Assembly (NCBI GenBank): GCA_016192075.1
Contig: JACPUU010000012.1
Coordinates: 682,001 to 746,000 of the forward strand
From: Bacteroidota bacterium
GTDB taxonomy: Bacteria > Bacteroidota > Bacteroidia > Flavobacteriales_D > Crocinitomicaceae
DNA: 64,000 nt
Direction: 5' to 3'
Shown one piece after another: positions 40,046 to 49,506 of the stretch (positions within the stretch are counted from its first letter, which is position 1; the number at the start of each line of letters is the position of its first letter). Under the pieces are notes generated by a model, which did no database searches, was not told where the DNA came from, and was given only the letters and a program-made list of their open reading frames with translations. Position numbers and translations under genes: made by a program.

Positions 40046-40120
40046 GGTTACGGTTTGCAAATAGGCACAGAGGGCAACAGGAAATGGGCGTTCGCCTTTT
40101 GTGCTTATTTGCTGTTAGAA
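40046..40120 (-). repeat. attC-like palindrome F, downstream of the Abi-like gene
   Basis: A 19-base arm (40057-40075) pairs with 40094-40112 (GCAAATA.GCACA... against ...TGTGC.TATTTGC). The outer ends are GGTTACGG on one side and GTTAGAA (40114-40120) on the other; the latter fits the GTTRRR core of integron attC sites. TTTGTGC occurs at 40098-40104, as in the five other island palindromes. It lies directly after the stop of the Abi-like gene. Confidence 0.5.
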
Positions 40121-40128
40121 GCTGTTTT

Positions 40129-40836
40129 TCATTTACCATAGTTAAAAATATACTCCAGTCGTTCAAGTTTCAATTTAAGGAGTTTTGTTTGCCAGTCTTT
40201 TATGTCAGTATGCGAAGAATCGGGTTTCTCAATTATCTCTAGCTTAAAAGAAATCAACGTGTATATTGCCGGGTTAATATTTGAACGCATAAATTTCTTC
40301 AGTTTATTTATCTCTGTAGTTTCAACGTCGGTTTCGTTAGAAATTTCTTCAAAACTGAAAAATGCGCTGTGGACTTTAGTTATTGCCTCATCGATTGTCC
40401 GTTCTTGATTTTTGAGAAATTTTTTCCAGTCATAATCCTTGCTTTTAAAGTCCGCAATTTTTTCGGCAAATTCAGATATTCCAATGTTTTCTGTCCCTTG
40501 CCCCAAACCGAGATGCCAAACAAAATTTATTTTATCAAGTTGTGAATTGAGATAGTCCGTTTGCTTAAAAAGTATATTTGTAAGTCTATTAATTTTGAAT
40601 TCATATCTAGTCTGTTTTAATTCTTCTTTTTGCAAATTCATTTCTTGTTGCTGAATTAAAATTGATACAATTATTCCAAATAATGCTAGACCTGAGAATA
40701 GTGCATTTACAGCACCAAACATGTCGCCAAATGTTCCTCTGTTACTTGTTCCGTAGTGAATAGCAATACCTGATCCAATCCAAATGAAAATGACAATAAC
40801 AATTCCGACGATGAGTTTATTTGTTGTAATTTGCAT
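40129..40836 (-). CDS. Two-helix membrane protein, putative phage abortive-infection type
   Basis: A 235-residue protein with two N-terminal membrane helices (about 8-28 and 40-62) separated by NRGTFGDMFGAVNALFSGLA, then a coiled-coil-prone cytosolic part beginning QQQEMNLQKEELKQTRYEF. This layout and the GDMFGAVNALFSGLAF-like motif are characteristic of the 'putative phage abortive infection protein' family (PF16872-like) and of many orphan defence-island genes. The C-terminal ~100 residues are Lys/Glu-rich and helical. No catalytic motif is visible, and a toxin partner is not seen. It is one cassette of the minus-strand island. Confidence 0.6.
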   Translation of the reverse strand: MQITTNKLIVGIVIVIFIWIGSGIAIHYGTSNRGTFGDMFGAVNALFSGLALFGIIVSILIQQQEMNLQKEELKQTRYEFKINRLTNILFKQTDYLNSQLDKINFVWHLGLGQGTENIGISEFAEKIADFKSKDYDWKKFLKNQERTIDEAITKVHSAFFSFEEISNETDVETTEINKLKKFMRSNINPAIYTLISFKLEIIEKPDSSHTDIKDWQTKLLKLKLERLEYIFNYGK

Positions 40837-41075: not shown

Positions 41076-41912
41076 TCAAACAGTCGGTTTTGGAATGACT
41101 TGCTCAAATTCTTGTATGACTTTTGAAGAAATGACACAGCCAAGATTGGCAGGAATTTTTGAGCGGAAAATTGAGTCTAATGTCGTTGGAATATTTGTTG
41201 TTTCAATTTTTCCAGTGGCATTCAATTCGTGACCGCCATATAGAACGCCGACAAAATAAAATTTATCATCCCTTCCTGCAAGTCTAGTTCCTGCAGAGTT
41301 TACAACATTGAGTCCTTCCTTATATAAAAAAACGGGACTTCCACTTGAGCCTGGGAATGCGGCGATGTCAATCAAAAATTCGACTCTACCATTGTAAGGG
41401 AGACCGGGTTTAGTTGCTGTAACTCCTTTTCTGAATATTGGACGGTTGTTATGCTCATCTGAAAGTCCAATTGGGTAACCTACCATTAAAACATCTTCTA
41501 GTTCTGAAAATGTTTCAAATTCTTGTGTGGTCGGAATAATATCGGGTGCAATTCTAGACCATCTAATTTGTGAACCTAAGTTTTTTTCGAATGTGGTTAA
41601 TATATTTCCGAATGTCGTAGCACAAAGATCAATTTTTTCATTCGGATGATTGATCCATAGATTCTTGGTCGGAATACGAACAGTTGGAAAGTCCCGAAAT
41701 ATTGGCTTTCCTGTTCCGTCCTTTTGAGTCAATCTAAAAACGGTTTCTACTGAGTCCTTAATCACGTGCTTATTAGTGATTAGTATTGGAACATGAGAAG
41801 TCCCATCACCATGGAGCGCAAATATGAAGCCCGTACCCGCTGATTTAGTTCCATCAGCTTTTGTGCAAATAAGTCTTGTTACACAATATGCAATATTTTC
41901 AGTATTTATCAT
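41076..41912 (-). CDS. Cytosolic trypsin-like serine protease
   Basis: A 278-residue chymotrypsin-fold (S1-like) protease without a signal peptide or membrane helix. The catalytic triad is visible: His49 in LITNKHVIKD, Asp95 in NEKIDLCATTF and Ser190 in FPGSSGSPVFLYK. Substrate-pocket features cannot be assigned. An intracellular trypsin-like protease in a mobile island suggests a defence or toxin-processing role, as in several anti-phage systems that use proteases, but that is inference from location. It is bracketed by the two homologous palindromes A and B, so it looks like an individually mobile cassette. Confidence 0.82.
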   Translation of the reverse strand: MINTENIAYCVTRLICTKADGTKSAGTGFIFALHGDGTSHVPILITNKHVIKDSVETVFRLTQKDGTGKPIFRDFPTVRIPTKNLWINHPNEKIDLCATTFGNILTTFEKNLGSQIRWSRIAPDIIPTTQEFETFSELEDVLMVGYPIGLSDEHNNRPIFRKGVTATKPGLPYNGRVEFLIDIAAFPGSSGSPVFLYKEGLNVVNSAGTRLAGRDDKFYFVGVLYGGHELNATGKIETTNIPTTLDSIFRSKIPANLGCVISSKVIQEFEQVIPKPTV

Positions 41913-42121: not shown

Positions 42122-42709
42122 TTACTCCTTGACAATAAATTCAAAGGTCATTAAACATTCTACCATCATAGACATATTCTTAAATAAATCATCGGTTTGA
42201 GAAGCACCCGCAATCAGATGATAAAAATAACCTTCCTCATCGCTTTTGATAATAAAGCCAATATTTTCAATTGCTCCATAATGCCCAGAATCTGATTTCG
42301 TATGAATGAAATATGCGGGATAATTCAACACTTCTGTTTCTCCTGATTCCACCAATTTCATGCCTAGAGGGTTGGTCTTGGATAGATTTAGTAGGTGATC
42401 GTATTCGGTTTGGAGGTCATTCGATTTACTTTGACTTTTGATTTTTTGAATAGAAATTATATCAATGTAGCCATCCTTATCAGCAGGCGATGCGGCGTTA
42501 AGCATGACGAGGAAATTCTCCCCATCACAATCCTCTTCTTCATTTCGCCAACTCCAACCAGAAGGAATCATTAACGCGAAATTTTCAGAAGTTAACGAAA
42601 CTTCTTGCTTTTCAAAATTAACTGGATTATTGACAATTTGATTTAATGTAATGTCTCCACCACAAGAGCTTAAGGCAGCTAAATAAAGTAGAATTGGAAT
42701 ATAGTTCAT
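42122..42709 (-). CDS. Putative lipoprotein, unknown, in the cassette island
   Basis: A 195-residue protein with a lipoprotein signal (YIPILLYLAALSSCGG, Cys near 16). The mature part opens with LTSENFALMIPSGWSWRNEE, a pattern seen in small envelope proteins whose domain resembles PsbP/DUF1795-type folds; this is a tentative structural hint. It continues with VESGETEVLNYPAYFIHTKS and ends in MVECLMTFEFIVKE. No function is assigned. It is AT-rich like its neighbours and is a single-gene cassette between palindromes B and C. Confidence 0.62.
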   Translation of the reverse strand: MNYIPILLYLAALSSCGGDITLNQIVNNPVNFEKQEVSLTSENFALMIPSGWSWRNEEEDCDGENFLVMLNAASPADKDGYIDIISIQKIKSQSKSNDLQTEYDHLLNLSKTNPLGMKLVESGETEVLNYPAYFIHTKSDSGHYGAIENIGFIIKSDEEGYFYHLIAGASQTDDLFKNMSMMVECLMTFEFIVKE

Positions 42710-42725
42710 GGTGTTTTCATATTAT

Positions 42726-42858
42726 GCATAACGGTTTTGGGCTTGGCGTTCGTGCGGGATTTCAGGGCACAAAACTGTCAAGCCAGCACAAAAGTTGATT
42801 TGAAAAACTGCACTTGAATTTGTGCATGTCACCCCGCATGACGCCAAACCCATGTTAC
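42726..42858 (-). repeat. attC-like palindrome C
   Basis: Arms 42726-42758 and 42833-42858 pair well (TAAC....GGGCTTGGCGT.CGTGCGGG against CCCGCATGACGCCAAACCCATGTTAC). The ends are TAAC and GTTA. Inner GCACAAAA (from 42767) faces TTTGTGC (42819-42825). It lies upstream of the lipoprotein start and downstream of the restriction-like operon, next to palindrome D. Confidence 0.55.
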
Positions 42859-42885
42859 CTGCTGCCCCTTTTTCGGTAGTCTGTC

Positions 42886-42976
42886 CAGCGTTGGCAAAAA
42901 GCACACTCTTTTGCAAGCTTTGGCGTGTGTGTTGGCTTTGTGCGGCTTGCAAATGTGTGTGCTTGTGCATTAGCAT
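42886..42976 (-). repeat. Palindrome D, downstream end of the methylase-MORC-Z1 operon
   Basis: Arms GCACACTCTTTTGCAAGC (42901-42918) and 42945-42962 are complementary at 16 of 18 positions. It is homologous to palindrome E: CAGCGTTGGCAA is shared and a 27-base block (42931-42957) is identical to 49200-49226. It begins a few bases past the stop of the PD-(D/E)XK gene. D and E therefore bracket the operon. Confidence 0.6.
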
Positions 42977-42986
42977 TATGTCAGCA

Positions 42987-43967
42987 TTAGATTGCATTAA
43001 ATAATTTTTGTTTGTTTATTAGTTTATTTATGTCTGCCTGTTTAGTTTCTGTCAAGTCAGATTTATAACGAACTTCTGAAACTTCTGTAGGAATGTGCAC
43101 CAACTCAATTTTGCTTATGTCTTGATGTTTGTAAAAGCGTAACGATTGTTTAGCAATTTCATAGTCAAACTTTATTCCTATGGAATGTTCTAAAGAACTG
43201 CCAAGTGTCTTGCAAATAATACTGTTTAGTTTTTCCTTCAGTTCGTAATCCCTACCTAATTTTTCAGAGATGCTTTCCGTGAGTTGGTGAATATTTAGGC
43301 CTGAATTATTTTGTTTTACGAAAATTGAAGCGATTAAAACCTGTGTGTCGGCTGGCGGATTTAATTGCTCCGATGAAAAGATGTGTTTACGTTCAAATGT
43401 AGAGCTACTCTTTACTTCAATTCGTTCTGTTCCTGCATTAAAATCAAACTTTTCTTCGGGAATGCTATGCCAATATTCTAGTAGCGTTTGCGGATTTGAT
43501 GCATTGTCAATTAAAAACAACTCTGCCCAAAGTCCGTTTACTGTGTTGGTTGGTGAATCTGTTAAGATTTTAAAAACTTCAATAAACCTTTTTAAAGCAT
43601 CAACAACTTGTTGTTGCGTAGGATTTGCTCCTATTGTTTTGATTAGAGTTTCTGCAATTCTCAAAAAATATTCTTGCAGATTTCTATCTAAACTTCTGAA
43701 AGTAATTACAGTAAATGTTTGTAGTCTACTTCCTCCGTTTTCTGATATTTTGCACTCAATGTTTTGTTGAAGCTGTAAATATTTCAAGCGAAAGTTTTTT
43801 AGACTAATATCTTTTATGCGTTTTGTAACTGATAGTAAAAGAACAGCATTACCTTCAACGTCTATTGCAATTCTAAATTCAGGATATTCAGGAATAGCGA
43901 TAGCATTGAAAACATTGGTGTTGTTTTCAGGAATTGAAAGCGTGTCATATAAATCAATTAAATTCAT
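42987..43967 (-). CDS. PD-(D/E)XK nuclease-like protein (DUF4420 type)
   Basis: The ATG at 43967 (MNLIDLYDTLSIPEN) overlaps the Z1 gene stop as ATGA, giving 326 residues. The middle contains a nuclease core: FDFNAGTERIEVKSSSTFER (about 187-206), where Asp, Glu and Lys of the D...ExK motif are visible, preceded by LWAELFLI. This matches PD-(D/E)XK motif proteins (DUF4420) that sit with Z1 and MORC-like ATPases in restriction-like islands. It is the probable DNA-cutting subunit. A longer TTG start is possible but not needed. Confidence 0.8.
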   Translation of the reverse strand: MNLIDLYDTLSIPENNTNVFNAIAIPEYPEFRIAIDVEGNAVLLLSVTKRIKDISLKNFRLKYLQLQQNIECKISENGGSRLQTFTVITFRSLDRNLQEYFLRIAETLIKTIGANPTQQQVVDALKRFIEVFKILTDSPTNTVNGLWAELFLIDNASNPQTLLEYWHSIPEEKFDFNAGTERIEVKSSSTFERKHIFSSEQLNPPADTQVLIASIFVKQNNSGLNIHQLTESISEKLGRDYELKEKLNSIICKTLGSSLEHSIGIKFDYEIAKQSLRFYKHQDISKIELVHIPTEVSEVRYKSDLTETKQADINKLINKQKLFNAI

Positions 43968-46201
43968 ACTTGCCTGATTATGTCTGTTCCAATATGTTCG
44001 GGAATCCAAATTGCAAGTGTGGGCACTCTTGTAAATTCTGTGTCTCTAATGTTGAGCAAGTGAATTTGAATAGTTAACAAATTCTCGTCTTTAATTTCCG
44101 AATCCCCTGGATAGATTACTTCTCCAGTTCTTGGGTTTTTACCTTGAAACAACTGTTGAATTTCTTGGTTTCTATCTAGCCTACGGGTTCTCCCTGCCCA
44201 ATTGTCAATAGAATTAGCACTCATCAAATAAACCAAACATTCATCGTCTGGGTGTTCTTCTATGTAGGCTTTTAAAATTCCTCGTAAACTTGAATAAGTA
44301 GCAGAATCGCTTTCTCTTGTGTAACGAAGTTTATTTAGCAAATGCTCCAAACAATTTTTGATTGTAATTTTTGCAACCAAATGTTTTTGTTCTTCCGTTC
44401 TGTTTGGGTGCCCTGCATCTTGTGAGAAGTTTGCAGCGTTAGTTTGTAAAAAGGCAAACAAAGAATTCCTGTTTGTATCAATTAGTTCTTCTGTGTCGTG
44501 TGGTGCATTAATTCTAAACCAATCGTTTCCAAACGTATCTCTTTCCAAATCATCATAAATTACGTTACGTCTAGTCAGATTAAGCATTTGGTCTAATACT
44601 GCCTCTCTGTCCCAATCATTCAAATGCCGATTGTTAAGGTCAAATTCTAAAAGTCTGTTTCTTACATCTTCTTCATGTGCAACAATGAAATTGTATGAAT
44701 CAATCGTTACTTGGTCTAGAAACACACGGCAAAATCCTAAATAATTTCTTTTGTAACCGAAAAATCTTGCCCGCTGCTGGATTGTATCAACATTTCCTGT
44801 TCCTATATTTCTGGGCATATAAGTTACCGTTAACCCTTCAACGGTGAAACCTCTGTCCATAGATTGCCCACCTACTAAAATCCAAGAATAGGAATCGTTC
44901 CAAGGAATTTGAGGTGTTTCACCATTACGAGAGTTTACCTCTACAATTTGTGTGTATCGTATTGCATGAATTAGGTTTGTTCCTGTTAATTCTTCAAATG
45001 ATTGTATGTTAGAAACCGTTTGCTGTAATTGGTTATATGATTCTCTAAATTCATTCAGTAATTCACGCCTATCTTCACTGTCATTGCTCGACAACAATCT
45101 TTGCCAACTATTGCAAGTATTCCGAATCCAATTTGTAAAATCGTTGTGGTCTCCCTGCAATCTTGATGGGTGAACAAGCATTGTTCTATTTCTTTGGTCT
45201 TTGTTTATTTCACCTGCAACAACGCCTAGAAAGTAAATTCGTAAAGCACTTTTCAGACTTTCAGGAATCTCAAATAGCTGATTATTATTTGTTGAAATTT
45301 CGTTCGCTGGAATTTCTACAATCAAATTCGGATTATTCCTAAAAAATTCAATTCCGCCCGTGTATTCTAGCCCGGGTGTTAAAAGCTTAATAAAATTAGG
45401 CGAAAGTCTATCCATAATGTTGATGAATAGATTTGCTTGTGGTGTTGCAGTGTATTGCAAAAAAGTGTGATGAAAAAAAATAGAACGTAATGCAGTTATT
45501 CTTCTATATATTGTAGAAACTTGGTTTTCACTTAAATTTTCAACATCAATACCTTGTCTTGCTGCCCACCTCGCTCTTGTGTTCAAACTTGCTTGGTCGC
45601 CCTCATCATCAATTATCAATGTAGGAACGCCTTGTAAATTTTGTCCTTGTAAAATATTCACTAGATTGTTTAGGTGGGAAGTGTTTTTCATTACCGTAAT
45701 TAGTAATGTCCTACACCTATCATTTGGGAAAGTCGGGTCTGCCCACTGTGCTAGTGTTGTTTCTATGATTTCTGCATCTTGAGTTCTGCTTGGATTTTGA
45801 AGTAATGTCCATTTTCTATCAAAACGAGTATTTAATCTCAAATCGTTTGATAAGCGTTGTGTTGATTGATTTACCAAGTTTGTTGAAACTCCTGCAATTA
45901 CGATGACTACTTGATAATTGTTATCTCTTGCTAAAGCCGTAAGCGTAGTAAATGAAAGTGTTTTACCACTTTGAACATAACCAATTACAATTCCTGTTTC
46001 GTTGTTAGTTGGATTGTTCGGACTTCCGCAAACCTGCATAATGCGATACGTTTCATTTAAAACACGTTCGCCACTTTCGTTTGGTGTTTTGTCAGCATTG
46101 GCAAAACCTTTACTGCGTAATAGTTCAATAGTCTCATCTCCAACAAACGGTTGCCATTCGCCATTTGTATTGTTATTCTGTATTTCAATTATTTCAGTCA
46201 T
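43964..46201 (-). CDS. Z1-domain SF2-type ATPase
   Basis: A 745-residue protein from the ATG at 46201, seven bases after the MORC stop. A P-loop IGYVQSGKTLSFTTL lies near 75-90, Walker B TLIIDDEGDQASLN near 205. The Z1 core contains SWILVGGQSMDRGFTVEGLT and TVTYMPRNIGTGNVDTIQQR, ending in a motif-VI-like ARFFGYK. Z1 proteins are SF2-related ATPases found with MORC-type ATPases and methylases. They are thought to translocate on or remodel DNA. The C-terminal third has no recognised domain. Confidence 0.86.
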   Translation of the reverse strand: MTEIIEIQNNNTNGEWQPFVGDETIELLRSKGFANADKTPNESGERVLNETYRIMQVCGSPNNPTNNETGIVIGYVQSGKTLSFTTLTALARDNNYQVVIVIAGVSTNLVNQSTQRLSNDLRLNTRFDRKWTLLQNPSRTQDAEIIETTLAQWADPTFPNDRCRTLLITVMKNTSHLNNLVNILQGQNLQGVPTLIIDDEGDQASLNTRARWAARQGIDVENLSENQVSTIYRRITALRSIFFHHTFLQYTATPQANLFINIMDRLSPNFIKLLTPGLEYTGGIEFFRNNPNLIVEIPANEISTNNNQLFEIPESLKSALRIYFLGVVAGEINKDQRNRTMLVHPSRLQGDHNDFTNWIRNTCNSWQRLLSSNDSEDRRELLNEFRESYNQLQQTVSNIQSFEELTGTNLIHAIRYTQIVEVNSRNGETPQIPWNDSYSWILVGGQSMDRGFTVEGLTVTYMPRNIGTGNVDTIQQRARFFGYKRNYLGFCRVFLDQVTIDSYNFIVAHEEDVRNRLLEFDLNNRHLNDWDREAVLDQMLNLTRRNVIYDDLERDTFGNDWFRINAPHDTEELIDTNRNSLFAFLQTNAANFSQDAGHPNRTEEQKHLVAKITIKNCLEHLLNKLRYTRESDSATYSSLRGILKAYIEEHPDDECLVYLMSANSIDNWAGRTRRLDRNQEIQQLFQGKNPRTGEVIYPGDSEIKDENLLTIQIHLLNIRDTEFTRVPTLAIWIPEHIGTDIIRQV

Positions 46202-46208
46202 ATGCAGT

Positions 46209-47744
46209 TTACTTTGATAAATTGGCAATTAGTTCATTGAAGTTTCTACGCACTTCGCCTTGATTTTTGTAGCTGTCTTTTGCAATAATTTCAGAAAGTC
46301 CAAAAGCTGCGGCTATACGAAGTATCGGTTCAATTTTATTTGTGTCTGCTCCTGCAAACTCAACCATAAAAGGGTGAGTAAGAGAAAGCCGAATACCGAT
46401 TTGTCTGACTGATGAATTGTTTACTTTTTCTTTTATAAAACTGTCACCAACTTCTATTAACTCTGTTAATGATGGGTCATAAGACAATTCTATTGAAACT
46501 TTCCAATCAGTTTTATTAAATCGTAAATCAAATTCACGATGCAGCGTTTGTTCGGTTTTTGTTAATTCTTCTTGTTCAGGTTCTTCTACTCTTGAAATAG
46601 AGTTTACAACATCTGCAACCGCTTGTGGTGCTTTCTTTTCAAAATCATTAACTGTTTCGTCAAGTGCTTTTACAGCAGCTTTGTATTCAACTACTGTAGC
46701 ACGAACTCTATATTGTTCTGCTTGTTGTAATAGAGGAAAATCCTTTGAACTAATATCGTCTTTCAAAAGACGAAGAAAAATATCAAGATTTTCATCCCAT
46801 TGAATACCTTTCTTGGTGAAGTTTACGCTAAATCCATCTAGGTGTAACTCGCCAAAAACTCTTTGATAGCGATAGCTGTTCGGTGCACCAAAAATAAAGT
46901 CTGGTCTAAATCCATCGTCAAAACTTCCTTCAATCACACGTCCTCTTCGAAATAATGCAAATCCTGCTTCTGCTGTCGAAGCTTTTTCACGAATAGCGAC
47001 AAATCCATGAACGCTTAATCCTTCTTCGATAACAAAGTTGATTTCTTTACGCCAAAGAATCGATTCACCATTTGGCTCATCGTGTTTTGGAACATTTAAA
47101 ACTTTTGGGTCATTGAATGTTAGTTCTTCACCGTTCAATGTTAGCTTTAAAACTCCTTTTCGGATGAACTCTCTGTAAATGCTTCGTAAATGGTCTTTTA
47201 CTTTTCCAACTCCTTTGCGTTTTGGAATACGGTTTACATTAAATAATTCAACGATTGTATAATGACGTTTTTTGTCGCAAGGTCTAGTTTCAACGTCTAG
47301 TTCTTCTAGTTTGTCTTCAAAAATCTTTTGCATATCAAAGACAACTTTTTTGACGTTGTCTTCGCCCAATGCAGTTGTTGTAACACACCAATTGTCAGCA
47401 AACCAACAAGCCGCTGATTTCATTCCCATTCCGAATTCAGACAAGCCTGAATTATCAGGCGGAACTTCTGCTGCTCTAAAAGCCCTTGCGTAGTCGGCTT
47501 TTCCAATACCACCTGCATTATCACGAATGGTAATTCTGTTTTCTGGTTCGTTGATTTCTACTTTTACTTCAAGTTGAAAATCTTTACCCTCAATTTCTTT
47601 AATTGCTTTTTCGTTTTTAAGATAACTGTCAATTGCATTATCAATAAATTCAGCCAAAGCAAACCAAGTTTGATACTCTATATGTTTTAGCACAGAGAGC
47701 ATGGTTACTTGCGGGCGAATACTTACTTTATTTTGCTGACTCAT
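46209..47744 (-). CDS. MORC/paraMORC-type GHKL ATPase
   Basis: From the ATG at 47744 (MSQQNKVSIRPQ) it has 511 residues and overlaps the methyltransferase gene by 17 bases. The Bergerat ATP site is complete: N-box ALAEFIDNAIDSY, G1 RDNAGGIGKADYARAF, G2 SEFGMGMKSAACWFADNW. Next comes an S5-like region with KKGIQWDENLDIFLRLLKDD, and a helical C-terminus. Prokaryotic MORC-like proteins occur in restriction-modification neighbourhoods with methylases, SF2 ATPases and nucleases (Iyer, Abhiman and Aravind), as here. It may clamp or reshape DNA in response to methylation state. Confidence 0.87.
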   Translation of the reverse strand: MSQQNKVSIRPQVTMLSVLKHIEYQTWFALAEFIDNAIDSYLKNEKAIKEIEGKDFQLEVKVEINEPENRITIRDNAGGIGKADYARAFRAAEVPPDNSGLSEFGMGMKSAACWFADNWCVTTTALGEDNVKKVVFDMQKIFEDKLEELDVETRPCDKKRHYTIVELFNVNRIPKRKGVGKVKDHLRSIYREFIRKGVLKLTLNGEELTFNDPKVLNVPKHDEPNGESILWRKEINFVIEEGLSVHGFVAIREKASTAEAGFALFRRGRVIEGSFDDGFRPDFIFGAPNSYRYQRVFGELHLDGFSVNFTKKGIQWDENLDIFLRLLKDDISSKDFPLLQQAEQYRVRATVVEYKAAVKALDETVNDFEKKAPQAVADVVNSISRVEEPEQEELTKTEQTLHREFDLRFNKTDWKVSIELSYDPSLTELIEVGDSFIKEKVNNSSVRQIGIRLSLTHPFMVEFAGADTNKIEPILRIAAAFGLSEIIAKDSYKNQGEVRRNFNELIANLSK

Positions 47745-49083
47745 AGGTCTTAGATAAAGAATTATATGAATGGTGTTGCTTCGCAACACCATTAACTTTC
47801 TTCTCTTGTTCTAAAAGTTGTGTTGCTATGAGTTTTACAATTTTTGCATTTACAGCGTTGCCTAATGCTTTGAATGCAGCATTGTCATTTTCAGGAAGTT
47901 TTAAACCTTGCAGGGATTGAAGTTTCAATCCTTCTTTTCTTGTTATGTATCTGTTTTCCCATCCAATTATAGGAATTTGTGTATTGGTGCAAACAAGCGA
48001 AGGGAAGAAGTCTGGCTTTTTAATCCTGATGCCTGATGCTCTAAACTGTAAAATGTATTTATTGATTTTGCGTTTGCCATCTCCAACATTCCACTCCAAC
48101 TTTTGCCAACTTTGAGATGGTAATTCTGCAATTTTATTTACGGCTTCTTTAATGTATTTCTTGTTGTCTTTGTAAAACTGTCTATTTTGTTTGATATAGC
48201 GTTGTTTCCAATCGGGAAACACATCATCAACCCTTGCGTAGCTTGGTAAGTTTGCAAATTGTTCTTCTTTAGTCATTCCTTTAAGAGAAATACCAAAGTT
48301 ACCTTTGTATTCTCCTAATTCCTTTGGCGAAAGCAAATGAGGATAGATTTCTTCAAAAGGATAATCCGCACCAAACTCCATTCCCCAAATTGGGAAACCT
48401 GGGATTTTGATTTCTTTTGGTAGAGCATCTATTAGTTCTTGCCAAAGTTTAATACAGTCTTGGTTTGCTTTGGGCAACTTCTTTGCGTTGGCAGGATTGA
48501 GTTCAATAAAGTTGTCTAATTCCACAATGCTTTTTTTGTGTTTGTCAACTTTGTCAAAACTGAAATGTTGAAGTGCATTTTTGCCCAATGCTCCGACAAT
48601 AAAAATTCTTTGTCTATGCTGTGGAATGCCAAAGTCGTGGGGCGAATAATCTCTATGGTCAACATCATAGCCCAACCTTTCAAAGTCGGCTTTCATTGCT
48701 TTCCAAGTTTCTTCGTTGTTGTGCTTTGCTATGAAACGGACATTTTCAAGTATGAAAAATTTTGGAGTTCTTGCTTCAAGAATTTTTACAATCTCGTCAA
48801 ACAATGTTCCCCGTTCGTCTTCACGTCCAAGTTGTTTACCTGCTTTTGAAAATGGTTGGCAAGGGAACCCTGCACAAAGTATGTCGTGGTCAGGAATGAT
48901 TTCAATATTGTCTTTGACAATTTTTCTAATGTCTCCGTGAATGTTGATGTCCTTTCCCCAGTTAAGTTTGTAGGTTTCTCTTAAAACAGGGTCTAGTTCA
49001 CTGGCAAAAACACACTCGTGTCCAAGTTCGTGTAAGGCTTTGTGAAAACCGCCAATCCCTGCAAATAAGTCTATAAATTTCAT
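47728..49083 (-). CDS. DNA (cytosine-5) methyltransferase
   Basis: A 451-residue C5 methyltransferase, the modification part of the system. Motif I is DLFAGIGGFHKALHELG at residue 5; motif IV with the catalytic Cys is CAGFPCQPFSKAG (about 70-82); motif VI is FILENVRF; motif VIII is QHRQRIFIVG (about 155-164); motif X is FKALGNAVNAKIVKLIA near the C-terminus. The target-recognition region lies at about 200-375, so the recognised site cannot be read off. It is the first gene of the four-gene operon and is preceded by palindrome E. Confidence 0.95.
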   Translation of the reverse strand: MKFIDLFAGIGGFHKALHELGHECVFASELDPVLRETYKLNWGKDINIHGDIRKIVKDNIEIIPDHDILCAGFPCQPFSKAGKQLGREDERGTLFDEIVKILEARTPKFFILENVRFIAKHNNEETWKAMKADFERLGYDVDHRDYSPHDFGIPQHRQRIFIVGALGKNALQHFSFDKVDKHKKSIVELDNFIELNPANAKKLPKANQDCIKLWQELIDALPKEIKIPGFPIWGMEFGADYPFEEIYPHLLSPKELGEYKGNFGISLKGMTKEEQFANLPSYARVDDVFPDWKQRYIKQNRQFYKDNKKYIKEAVNKIAELPSQSWQKLEWNVGDGKRKINKYILQFRASGIRIKKPDFFPSLVCTNTQIPIIGWENRYITRKEGLKLQSLQGLKLPENDNAAFKALGNAVNAKIVKLIATQLLEQEKKVNGVAKQHHSYNSLSKTYESAK

Positions 49084-49154
49084 TCTGTTTTTATGTCCAA
49101 TTTTGTTATTATCAATTTCGCAATTTACGATTTTGTCTGTTCAATTTTTGTCGG

Positions 49155-49245
49155 CAGCGTTGGCAAGATTGCGGCTCTTTTGCAAGTTTTGTTTTGTGCG
49201 TTGGCTTTGTGCGGCTTGCAAATGTGCCACAATGTGTGTGGGCTG
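49155..49245 (-). repeat. Palindrome E, upstream end of the methylase-MORC-Z1 operon
   Basis: Arms TTGCGGCTCTTTTGCAAG (49169-49186) and 49215-49232 are complementary at 15-16 of 18 positions. Homologous to palindrome D, but the outer stem differs (TTGCGGC/GCCACAA against GCACAC/GTGTGC in D) while staying self-complementary. TTTGTGC at 49206-49212. The rest of the 49084-49400 gap has no gene; GGTTGCAGGTAAC near 49295-49305 could be another palindrome end. Confidence 0.6.
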
Positions 49246-49400
49246 TCTATGTTTTTTCCGTCAGCCCAATAGTAGCATTGTCGCTCGTCTGGGGTTGCAG
49301 GTAACTAGTTTATACCCCCACCTTTTCCACACTTATTTACCCAATATAGGGGAATAACCACAGGTTTGTTGGGGTTTATTTTTTCTAAGTTATCTATTTT

Positions 49401-49499
49401 TTACAGATCATCAAACAGACTCTTTATCTTTTCAATATTTTGGGTACAGACGTGCGTATGAATTTCAGTTGTTTTGCTGCTTGAATGGTCTGGACTTAA
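49401..49499 (-). pseudogene. C-terminal remnant of a tyrosine recombinase
   Basis: Between a TAG (49503-49505) and TAA (49401-49403), the minus strand encodes 33 codons ending SPDHSSSKTTEIHTHVCTQN and then IEKIKSLFDDL. This is the last block of tyrosine recombinases of the XerD/integron-integrase kind (normally LGHSSSKTTEIYTHVS...SPLD.L). The GH of LGH is replaced by DH after a Pro, and the catalytic Tyr is His. No other part of an integrase was found upstream; the flippase gene begins eight bases away. A dead fragment of a once active recombinase. Confidence 0.75.
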
Positions 49500-49506
49500 A
49501 AGCTAC

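What the first reader, a model, noticed from the sequence alone, without database searches (positions are those of the whole stretch)
42987..49083. Four-gene methylase-MORC-Z1-PD-(D/E)XK restriction-like system
C5 methyltransferase, GHKL MORC-type ATPase, Z1 SF2-type ATPase and a PD-(D/E)XK protein are chained by overlaps of 17 and 4 bases and a 7-base gap. MORC-like ATPases with methylases, SF2 ATPases and nucleases were noted by comparative genomics (Iyer, Abhiman and Aravind), but how such a set senses and cuts DNA is little studied. All catalytic motifs look intact here, so it is a good test case.
Basis: partly seen in the sequence, partly recalled or inferred. Interest (0 to 1): 0.72.

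Follow-up and report, generated by a model that had tools for sequence, protein, structure and literature searches.

The report
MORC restriction operon as integron cassette
The four-gene methylase-MORC-Z1-nuclease operon is real and looks like a DNA restriction system already predicted from other genomes, but here it is the cargo of one large mobile gene cassette, part of an integron-type array that in related bacteria carries other multi-gene anti-phage systems.

Summary
In detail: four minus-strand genes at 42987-49083 with the stated overlaps and intact motifs. The set is the 'third type' MORC operon of Iyer et al. 2008; the order MTase-MORC-Z1-nuclease recurs in 65 of 80 related loci. MORC, Z1 and nuclease co-evolve (r 0.95-0.97 in a close cluster); the methylase is exchanged (r 0.47) but keeps a conserved recognition region. 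Predicted function: ATP-dependent restriction-modification, untested.

The operon is one 6.6-kb cassette in a four-cassette integron-type array (about 40.05-49.31 kb). Each cassette starts with GTT and 6-7 more bases whose exact complement precedes its attC-like hairpin. A 33-codon remnant of a tyrosine recombinase lies 95 nt upstream. A conserved hairpin pair, found only there in this genome, brackets the operon. Such hairpins occur in 38 of 99 relatives (own genome included). In the arrays read they bracket co-oriented operons; 17 of 19 intervals tested hit defence families (RM types I, II, IIG, III, Zorya, MZA-like, SIR2-pAgo). Recombinases beside such arrays lack the about 42-residue IntI insert. 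Integrons with defence genes are known; multi-gene, hairpin-ended defence cassettes with a compact integrase look like a new variant.

The parts
47728..49083 (-). C5-cytosine DNA methyltransferase, 451 aa
   Evidence: PF00145 4e-66; M.HhaI structures 3e-44; catalytic motifs intact
46209..47744 (-). MORC-type GHKL-S5 ATPase, 511 aa
   Evidence: PF13589; Iyer MORC signature; AlphaFold2 model matches Hsp90-type GHKL folds, best E 2e-16
43964..46201 (-). Z1 SF2-type ATPase, 745 aa; residues about 20-536 form two RecA lobes, the Pfam 'Z1 domain' lying in the second
   Evidence: PF10593; AlphaFold2 model pLDDT 83.4; VIA-align Z 18.0, rmsd 3.8, 357 aligned to RIG-I; 17.6 to the FANCM translocase
42987..43967 (-). 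DUF4420 PD-(D/E)XK-type nuclease, 326 aa
   Evidence: PF14390 6.5e-54; the E, D, E and K positions are at least 90% conserved over 68 sequences; fold not predicted
49156..49235 (-). Upstream cassette-end hairpin (LE), 72 nt before the MTase start
   Evidence: 83% direct repeat of the downstream copy; profile and CM hits
42887..42966 (-). Downstream cassette-end hairpin (RE), 20 nt after the last stop
   Evidence: only two copies in the 4.65-Mb genome
49297..49305 (-). Cassette start, core site GTTACCTGC
   Evidence: perfect complement of R'' at 42854-42862
42726..42862 (-). attC-like site of the operon cassette: R'' GCAGGTAAC 42862-42854, stem, R' GTTATGC 42732-42726
   Evidence: folds better than shuffles on both strands as DNA, z -3.4 and -3.3
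49306..49400 (-). attI-like stretch between integrase remnant and cassette start, 95 nt
   Evidence: same spacing as in loci with intact recombinase (92, 98 and 95 nt in L140, L191 and L197)
49404..49502 (-). Remnant of a tyrosine recombinase (integrase), last 33 codons
   Evidence: profile of array-region recombinases, E 1.6e-8, only hit in the 64-kb window
42122..42709 (-). Second cassette: 195-aa lipoprotein-like gene; start 42732 GTTATGCATA, R'' 42116-42107
   Evidence: 10-nt start/R'' match
41076..41912 (-). Third cassette: trypsin-like peptidase PDC-S45; start 41927 GTTAGGGTTA, R'' 41063-41054
   Evidence: 10-nt match; PADLOC PDC-S45 4.5e-91
40129..40836 (-). Fourth cassette: 235-aa membrane-protein-like gene; start 40877 GTTAGAAGC, R'' 40122-40114; last attC-like site has a degenerate R' near 40051
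   Evidence: read by eye

Best explanation
A four-gene ATP-dependent restriction-modification operon is carried as one multi-gene integron-type cassette. The methylase marks host DNA at a conserved site. A complex of the MORC clamp-like ATPase, the Z1 SF2 translocase and the PD-(D/E)XK nuclease attacks unmodified incoming DNA: Z1 moves along duplex DNA, MORC closes on DNA and licenses cutting, the nuclease cuts (this division of labour is inferred from the families). The unit moves as a circle: a tyrosine recombinase joins the GTT core of a folded attC-like site to an attI site just after the recombinase gene. Here only the last 33 codons of that gene are left beside the array, and the own genome's best matches to the integrase model are weak (2.2e-19 against 1e-28 or better in many relatives), so the array is probably stranded. 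Shown by sequence: operon, cassette boundaries, attC-like hairpins, core-site complementarity, integrase remnant, hairpin pair. Inferred: recombination, restriction and defence.
For: Cassette hallmark: the first 9-10 nt of each of the four window cassettes are the exact complement of R'' at that cassette's own end (three, the fourth by eye). Among 32 hairpin-to-hairpin intervals, 13 have a mixed-sequence match of 9 nt or more against 22 of 920 mismatched pairings (p 4e-12). 152 of 157 genes in these intervals run in the hairpins' direction; 44 of 44 neighbouring hairpins within 15 kb, in 20 genomes, share orientation (table, counted). Recombinase gene, then 25-150 nt, then at least two chained cassettes: 9 of 20 testable recombinases, 0 of 53 control ORFs (p 1.7e-6). 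Integrase remnant E 1.6e-8 at the right distance. Cargo: 17 of 19 intervals tested hit PADLOC. Operon order in 65 of 80 loci; distances of MORC and nuclease to Z1 correlate 0.97 and 0.95, of the MTase 0.47 (34-locus cluster).
Against: No activity was measured. These recombinases lack the IntI insert reported as necessary for activity (title of Messier and Roy 2001, seen in the reference list of PMC4792948). 11 of 20 testable recombinases were not followed by two chained cassettes; with one link only, 10 of 20 against 8 of 53 controls (p 0.005). 19 of 32 hairpin intervals show no mixed-sequence core match; in 7 of these the only long match is A/T-rich and is not counted. The 32 intervals are not independent (7 loci with the MORC operon, 2 with the same 589-aa gene) and at least two (L126 13.3-18.2 kb, L015 11.3-15.4 kb) run from an RE to the next LE. 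Only 12 of 80 operon loci have a hairpin at an end; L007, for one, has none.
Confidence: 0.8

Rival explanations
1. The cassettes were made and moved by canonical IntI integrases of other Bacteroidota classes; the compact recombinases beside arrays in this class are Xer-like bystanders.
For: Canonical IntI over the curated cut-off occurs in 46 of 148 genomes of the phylum; two of three examined lie beside chained cassettes with attC-like sites of similar length (about 118 nt against about 126, same measure). Some genomes have both IntI and the hairpins, e.g. G099, G104, G114.
Against: 0 of 99 genomes of the same family or order have IntI over the cut-off, yet arrays there start 25-150 nt after a compact recombinase (9 of 20), with up to 11 chained cassettes in L198.
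Confidence: 0.25
2. The hairpin pair marks a single-strand transposon of the IS200/IS605 kind; the attC-like sites are incidental.
For: LE and RE are distinct hairpin classes in one orientation, close to the cargo.
Against: The core-site complementarity and attC-like stem lie outside LE and RE and fix the unit's ends. I did not search for Y1 transposases.
Confidence: 0.1
3. The operon is not a restriction system but an abortive or regulatory defence (MZA-like), the methylase protecting the host from triggering it.
For: Weak NCBIfam similarity to MzaB, MzaC and MzaD; a cassette in L124 combines a methylase-like gene with MzaC- and MzaE-like genes.
Against: All three scores far under curated cut-offs; none of the four cassette proteins hits MzaA or MzaE; catalytic nuclease residues conserved.
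Confidence: 0.2
4. An ordinary defence island whose hairpins are terminators or repeats with no role in mobility.
For: RE hairpins sit just after last stops, and in the window five T follow the RE stem, so a terminator role of the hairpins themselves is not excluded; no terminator scan was run. GC is low, 0.35-0.38, across the island.
Against: Only two copies in the genome, both at the operon ends, one before the first gene; chained core matches and integrase remnant do not depend on the hairpins.
Confidence: 0.05

Closest known systems
Third class of prokaryotic MORC operons (Iyer, Abhiman and Aravind 2008, PMC2292703; parts 1-2 of 4 read)
   Same: MORC with GhXhhpXXRhl, SF2 helicase with DThhQXuRhFG, E-D-ExK nuclease, often a cytosine methylase
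   Different: No cassette context is given in the parts read
Putative defence system of Miller et al. 2022 (PMC9523054; section 11 read)
   Same: Core of Z1 protein, PD-(D/E)XK protein and cytosine methyltransferase
   Different: Theirs has further genes (AIPR in type II, three others in type I); the window has the four genes with MORC
MZA system (mzaABCDE, attributed to Gao et al. 2020 in PMC9523054; that paper itself not held)
   Same: Distant MzaB, MzaC and MzaD relatives
   Different: No MzaA or MzaE hit in the cassette, methylase present; scores far below cut-offs
CglI/NgoAVII restriction systems (PMC4267653; passages read)
   Same: DEAD-Z1 ATPase partnered with a nuclease and a methylase
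   Different: Their nuclease is PLD-B3; no MORC among the three genes
Integrons (sedentary chromosomal type; PMC8618304, PMC9668308, PMC4792948, passages read)
   Same: attI-like site by an integrase gene, co-oriented cassettes, attC-like hairpins, GTT core and R'' complementarity; defence genes among cassette functions
   Different: Intervals of 1-9 genes and 1.8-12.3 kb with an extra hairpin pair; integrase lacks the IntI insert and is co-oriented with the array

Membership tests
Iyer class-3 MORC operon | MORC S5 signature GhXhhpXXRhl | tested here: met
   GFALFRRGRVI in the window protein
Iyer class-3 MORC operon | SF2 helicase with DThhQXuRhFG | tested here: met
   DTIQQRARFFG; predicted tandem RecA fold
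Iyer class-3 MORC operon | RE-fold protein with E-D-ExK | tested here: met
   PF14390 and conserved residues; fold itself not predicted
Restriction-modification system | Methylation and cutting of a defined site | not testable with these tools
   Needs enzymes or methylome
MZA system | MzaB, MzaC and MzaD over cut-off, MzaA and MzaE present | tested here: not met
   28.5, 124 and 22.7 bits against cut-offs 850, 1500 and 420; no MzaA or MzaE hit among the four proteins
CglI/NgoAVII type | PLD-B3 nuclease | tested here: not met
   The nuclease hits PF14390 only
Integron-type cassette array | Cassette start complementary to R'' at the cassette end | tested here: met
   4 of 4 window cassettes; 13 of 32 intervals against 22 of 920 pairings
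Integron-type cassette array | attC-like hairpin between R'' and R' | tested here: met
   for the first window site; lengths over many loci peak at 124-132 nt (both strands counted)
Integron-type cassette array | Integrase gene next to attI | tested here: inconclusive
   Window: only a 33-codon remnant 95 nt away. Relatives: 9 of 20 testable recombinases
Canonical integron | IntI with its specific insert | tested here: not met
   0 of 99 relatives over the TIGR02249 cut-off; 57-59 residues between KDR and H.LRHS in seven recombinase genes measured, against 100 in three IntI; same gap in all 17 aligned
Integron | Recombination activity | not testable with these tools
   Needs an excision assay
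IS200/IS605 element | Y1 transposase | not tested
   No search made

The most novel reading that the evidence does not exclude
Bacteroidia have their own integron lineage, run by a compact Xer-type integrase without the IntI insert, and a hairpin pair (LE/RE) that lets whole operons, largely anti-phage systems of up to nine genes and 12 kb, travel as single cassettes. The window operon is one such cassette, stranded after its integrase decayed.
Probability: 0.5. Interest if true: 0.88.

Novelty: new variant of a known kind. Interest (0 to 1): 0.74.

Why it matters
Integron cassettes are usually pictured as single small genes (recalled). If restriction, Zorya or MORC systems move as one cassette, integrons could swap whole immune systems in one step, and defence islands of Bacteroidota would have a definable unit of transfer. 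Cassette ends also offer a way to delimit candidate defence systems exactly, and the compact integrase asks how folded attC DNA is recognised without the insert thought to be essential. For the operon itself, the data separate a co-evolving MORC-Z1-nuclease machine from an exchangeable methylase, which makes the sensing question testable.

Tried and rejected
Specificity swap test: I looked for a segment of MORC, Z1 or nuclease that changes together with the methylase. None stood out by eye in L023 (MTase 53% with Z1 84%), but conserved stretches of the recognition region remain in its methylase, so specificity may not have changed and the test is weak. The target site could not be predicted. 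L059, with two unrelated methylases, could be informative; one locus is not enough.

Conserved neighbours: peptidase and lipoprotein genes were found in no other of the 85 loci then held except the window's own copy (L003), the membrane gene in none (one search's count for the membrane gene was an artefact of an empty alignment). They are separate cassettes.

Rfam: no family matches in window 42600-49500; in four array loci only group II intron families were hit, all in L134. Classical inverted attC ends inside LE/RE were looked for by eye and not found; the attC-like site lies outside them. PDB sequence searches: none for MORC and nuclease, one chance-level hit for Z1.

My first cassette walker chose wrong next sites; searches replaced it. 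One search's control loci included array regions, so its control is not used. One search counts each array on both strands and is used only for the length peak.

Literature: ten searches were made. Those on this point (53, 74, 92, 103, 110) listed, by title and abstract, no description of hairpin-ended multi-gene cassettes or of a compact integrase in Bacteroidota; the library is open-access only, and I read passages of few of the listed papers. I recall two 2025 reports of Vibrio integrons as anti-phage libraries, not seen here. That the skipped stretch of TIGR02249 (180-238) holds the I2 domain is recalled; I showed that it is skipped and that the protein is about 42 residues shorter there.

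Full report
Observation. Searches confirm the four genes, strand, overlaps and motifs.

Operon family. Of 80 loci found with Z1 alone, 65 hold MTase-MORC-Z1-nuclease in this order and direction, in records named Bacteroidota groups, Proteobacteria, Chloroflexi, Clostridia and others. The 15 others: 12 lack a nuclease hit (several at contig ends; L048 also has a different methylase), L043 shows only Z1, L046 and L059 have no methylase before MORC. L012 and L016 have two extra genes between MORC and Z1. In 34 closely related complete loci, window included, pairwise distances of MORC-Z1, nuclease-Z1 and MTase-Z1 correlate at 0.971, 0.952 and 0.474; over all 64 complete loci at 0.979, 0.933 and 0.861 (L046, L048, L059 and fragments dropped). 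L039 and L040 share 80-82% of the methylase but 46-48% of Z1 with the window; L023 is the reverse. The methylase recognition region (residues 201-345, limits set by eye) keeps 16 columns at 90% or more over 74 sequences (six odd or partial methylases dropped). I read this as one restriction machine plus an exchangeable methylase of conserved specificity.

Structure. The Z1 model (pLDDT 83.4) aligns over about residues 20-536 with RIG-I (Z 18.0, rmsd 3.8, 357 aligned), the FANCM translocase (17.6), Mfd (16.9) and RecG (15.8); Foldseek also lists EcoR124I HsdR. The Pfam Z1 stretch (324-533 of the 754-aa reading, so about 315-524 here) falls in the second RecA lobe. The MORC model (pLDDT 79.1) matches Hsp90-type GHKL proteins; its part after residue 350 is of lower confidence. 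The nuclease was not modelled.

Cassette. A 72-nt direct repeat, 83% identical, lies at both ends of the operon (42886-42957 and 49155-49226) and nowhere else in the genome by BLAST or covariance model. Related hairpins lie at one or both ends of the same operon in 12 of the 80 loci. 4 of 8 predicted stem pairs have changes on both sides. Two hairpin classes exist, LE mostly before the first gene and RE after the last stop; classes were assigned by simple patterns and some copies stayed unclear.

Outside the hairpins lies the integron signature. Minus strand: recombinase remnant ...HSSSKTTEIHTHVCTQNIEKIKSLFDDL-stop at 49404-49502 (E 1.6e-8), 95 nt, then GTTACCTGC at 49305. At the other end is GCAGGTAAC (42862-42854), its exact complement, then a hairpin and GTTATGC (42732). 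The next three genes repeat the pattern. The last attC-like site has a degenerate R'.

Relatives. The hairpin model hits 38 of 99 genomes (own included) and 59 of 296 genomes of the phylum, in 44 of 140 genera. In the table, 44 of 44 neighbouring hairpins within 15 kb share orientation, in 20 genomes. I fetched arrays from a part of these genomes. In 32 intervals between successive hairpins (1.2-15 kb allowed; 1.8-12.3 kb found), 152 of 157 genes of at least 100 aa are co-oriented, median five genes; at least two of the 32 are RE-to-LE stretches, and L123 holds four of the five opposed genes. PADLOC on 30 chosen proteins from 19 intervals gave hits in 17: type I (L122, L134, L136, L157), IIG (L120, L128, L132), III (L184), II (L121, L138, L155), Zorya (L135), ZorB-like (L131), MzaC/MzaE-like (L124), SIR2-pAgo (L122, with type I), PDC-S39 (L159), UvrD-like (L015, the stretch after the MORC cassette) and Orf5/HEC-06 (L033); none in L129 (Hsp70-like) and the second L010 cassette. 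I mostly chose large genes and no control set was scanned, so this is not an enrichment test, and completeness of the systems was judged from gene sets by eye. Other intervals hold efflux-like and biosynthetic-looking genes (L126, L185; read from sequence only). Core-site matches: 13 of 32 against 22 of 920 mismatched pairings; without the MORC-operon cassettes 8 of 25.

Integrase. In three loci a recombinase gene is followed after 48, 10 and 42 nt by a GTT and then an LE-type hairpin (L180, L181, L182; read). Of 34 recombinase genes with the LRHS-type box, 14 end too near a contig or locus edge; of 20 testable, 9 are followed at 25-150 nt by at least two chained cassettes, against 0 of 53 other ORFs (p 1.7e-6); with one link, 10 of 20 against 8 of 53. 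L198 shows up to 11 chained cassettes starting 50 nt after the gene (8 under the settings). Five of these proteins score 213-237 bits to NF040815 (XerA/'integron integrase', cut-off 220; two pass) and 195-229 to TIGR02249 (cut-off 265; none passes). TIGR02249 passes its cut-off in 0 of 99 relatives but in 46 of 148 phylum genomes. In three canonical IntI (of seven fetched; the other four were not caught by my motif) 100 residues separate KDR and H.LRHS; 57-59 do so in the seven compact genes that the motif measured, and the alignment shows the same gap in all 17 aligned. Two canonical IntI have 12 and 4 chained cassettes in divergent orientation, a positive control for the walker; their attC-like sites are similar in length, about 118 against 126 nt.

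Verdict. The operon is a new member of a known predicted class. Its vehicle is the interesting part: a multi-gene, hairpin-ended integron-type cassette. Recombination and defence are inferred, not shown. Papers: PMC2292703 parts 1-2 of 4, PMC9523054 section 11 and passages, passages of PMC4267653, PMC5379612, PMC8618304, PMC9668308, PMC8352920 and PMC4792948; others only as search listings.

Noticed in passing
L134 14826-16666: A group II intron (RF00029, RF01999) with an RT-like gene sits right after the hairpin of a type I RM cassette, where the attC-like site would be.
   Followed up: partly
L012 5851-7865, L016 6005-7995: Six-gene variant of the operon with two extra genes between MORC and Z1; no Pfam hit for the two L012 proteins.
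   Followed up: partly
L059 11454-13633: Operon without its own methylase, followed by two unrelated methylases; a natural test for the specificity subunit.
   Followed up: no
L030 11226-12227: A fifth gene after the nuclease is a RhuM-family protein (PF13310 1e-111); a gene of similar size follows the nuclease in L028, L029, L031, L032 and L033.
   Followed up: partly
L139 6010-7779, L159 7365-9134: The same-length 589-aa single-gene cassette (L159: DUF4209, PDC-S39-like) with both hairpins in genomes of two families.
   Followed up: partly
L129 5380-10612: Five-gene hairpin-ended cassette with an Hsp70-like protein and no PADLOC hit in the one protein tested; a candidate new system.
   Followed up: no
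L008 11606-11674, L123 4364-4431, L030 13717-13785: Arrays abut a gene of about 300 aa on the other strand in different genomes (epimerase-like by eye in L008 and L123), suggesting a shared insertion point.
   Followed up: no
phylum sample: Canonical IntI is common (46 of 148 genomes), almost all outside the window's class, and over the cut-off in none of 99 relatives.
   Followed up: partly
L200-L219: Many of these contigs end within a few hundred bases after the recombinase gene, as expected if repeat-rich arrays break assembly.
   Followed up: no
L074: A Vsr-like endonuclease lies between methylase and MORC (motif read by eye).
   Followed up: no
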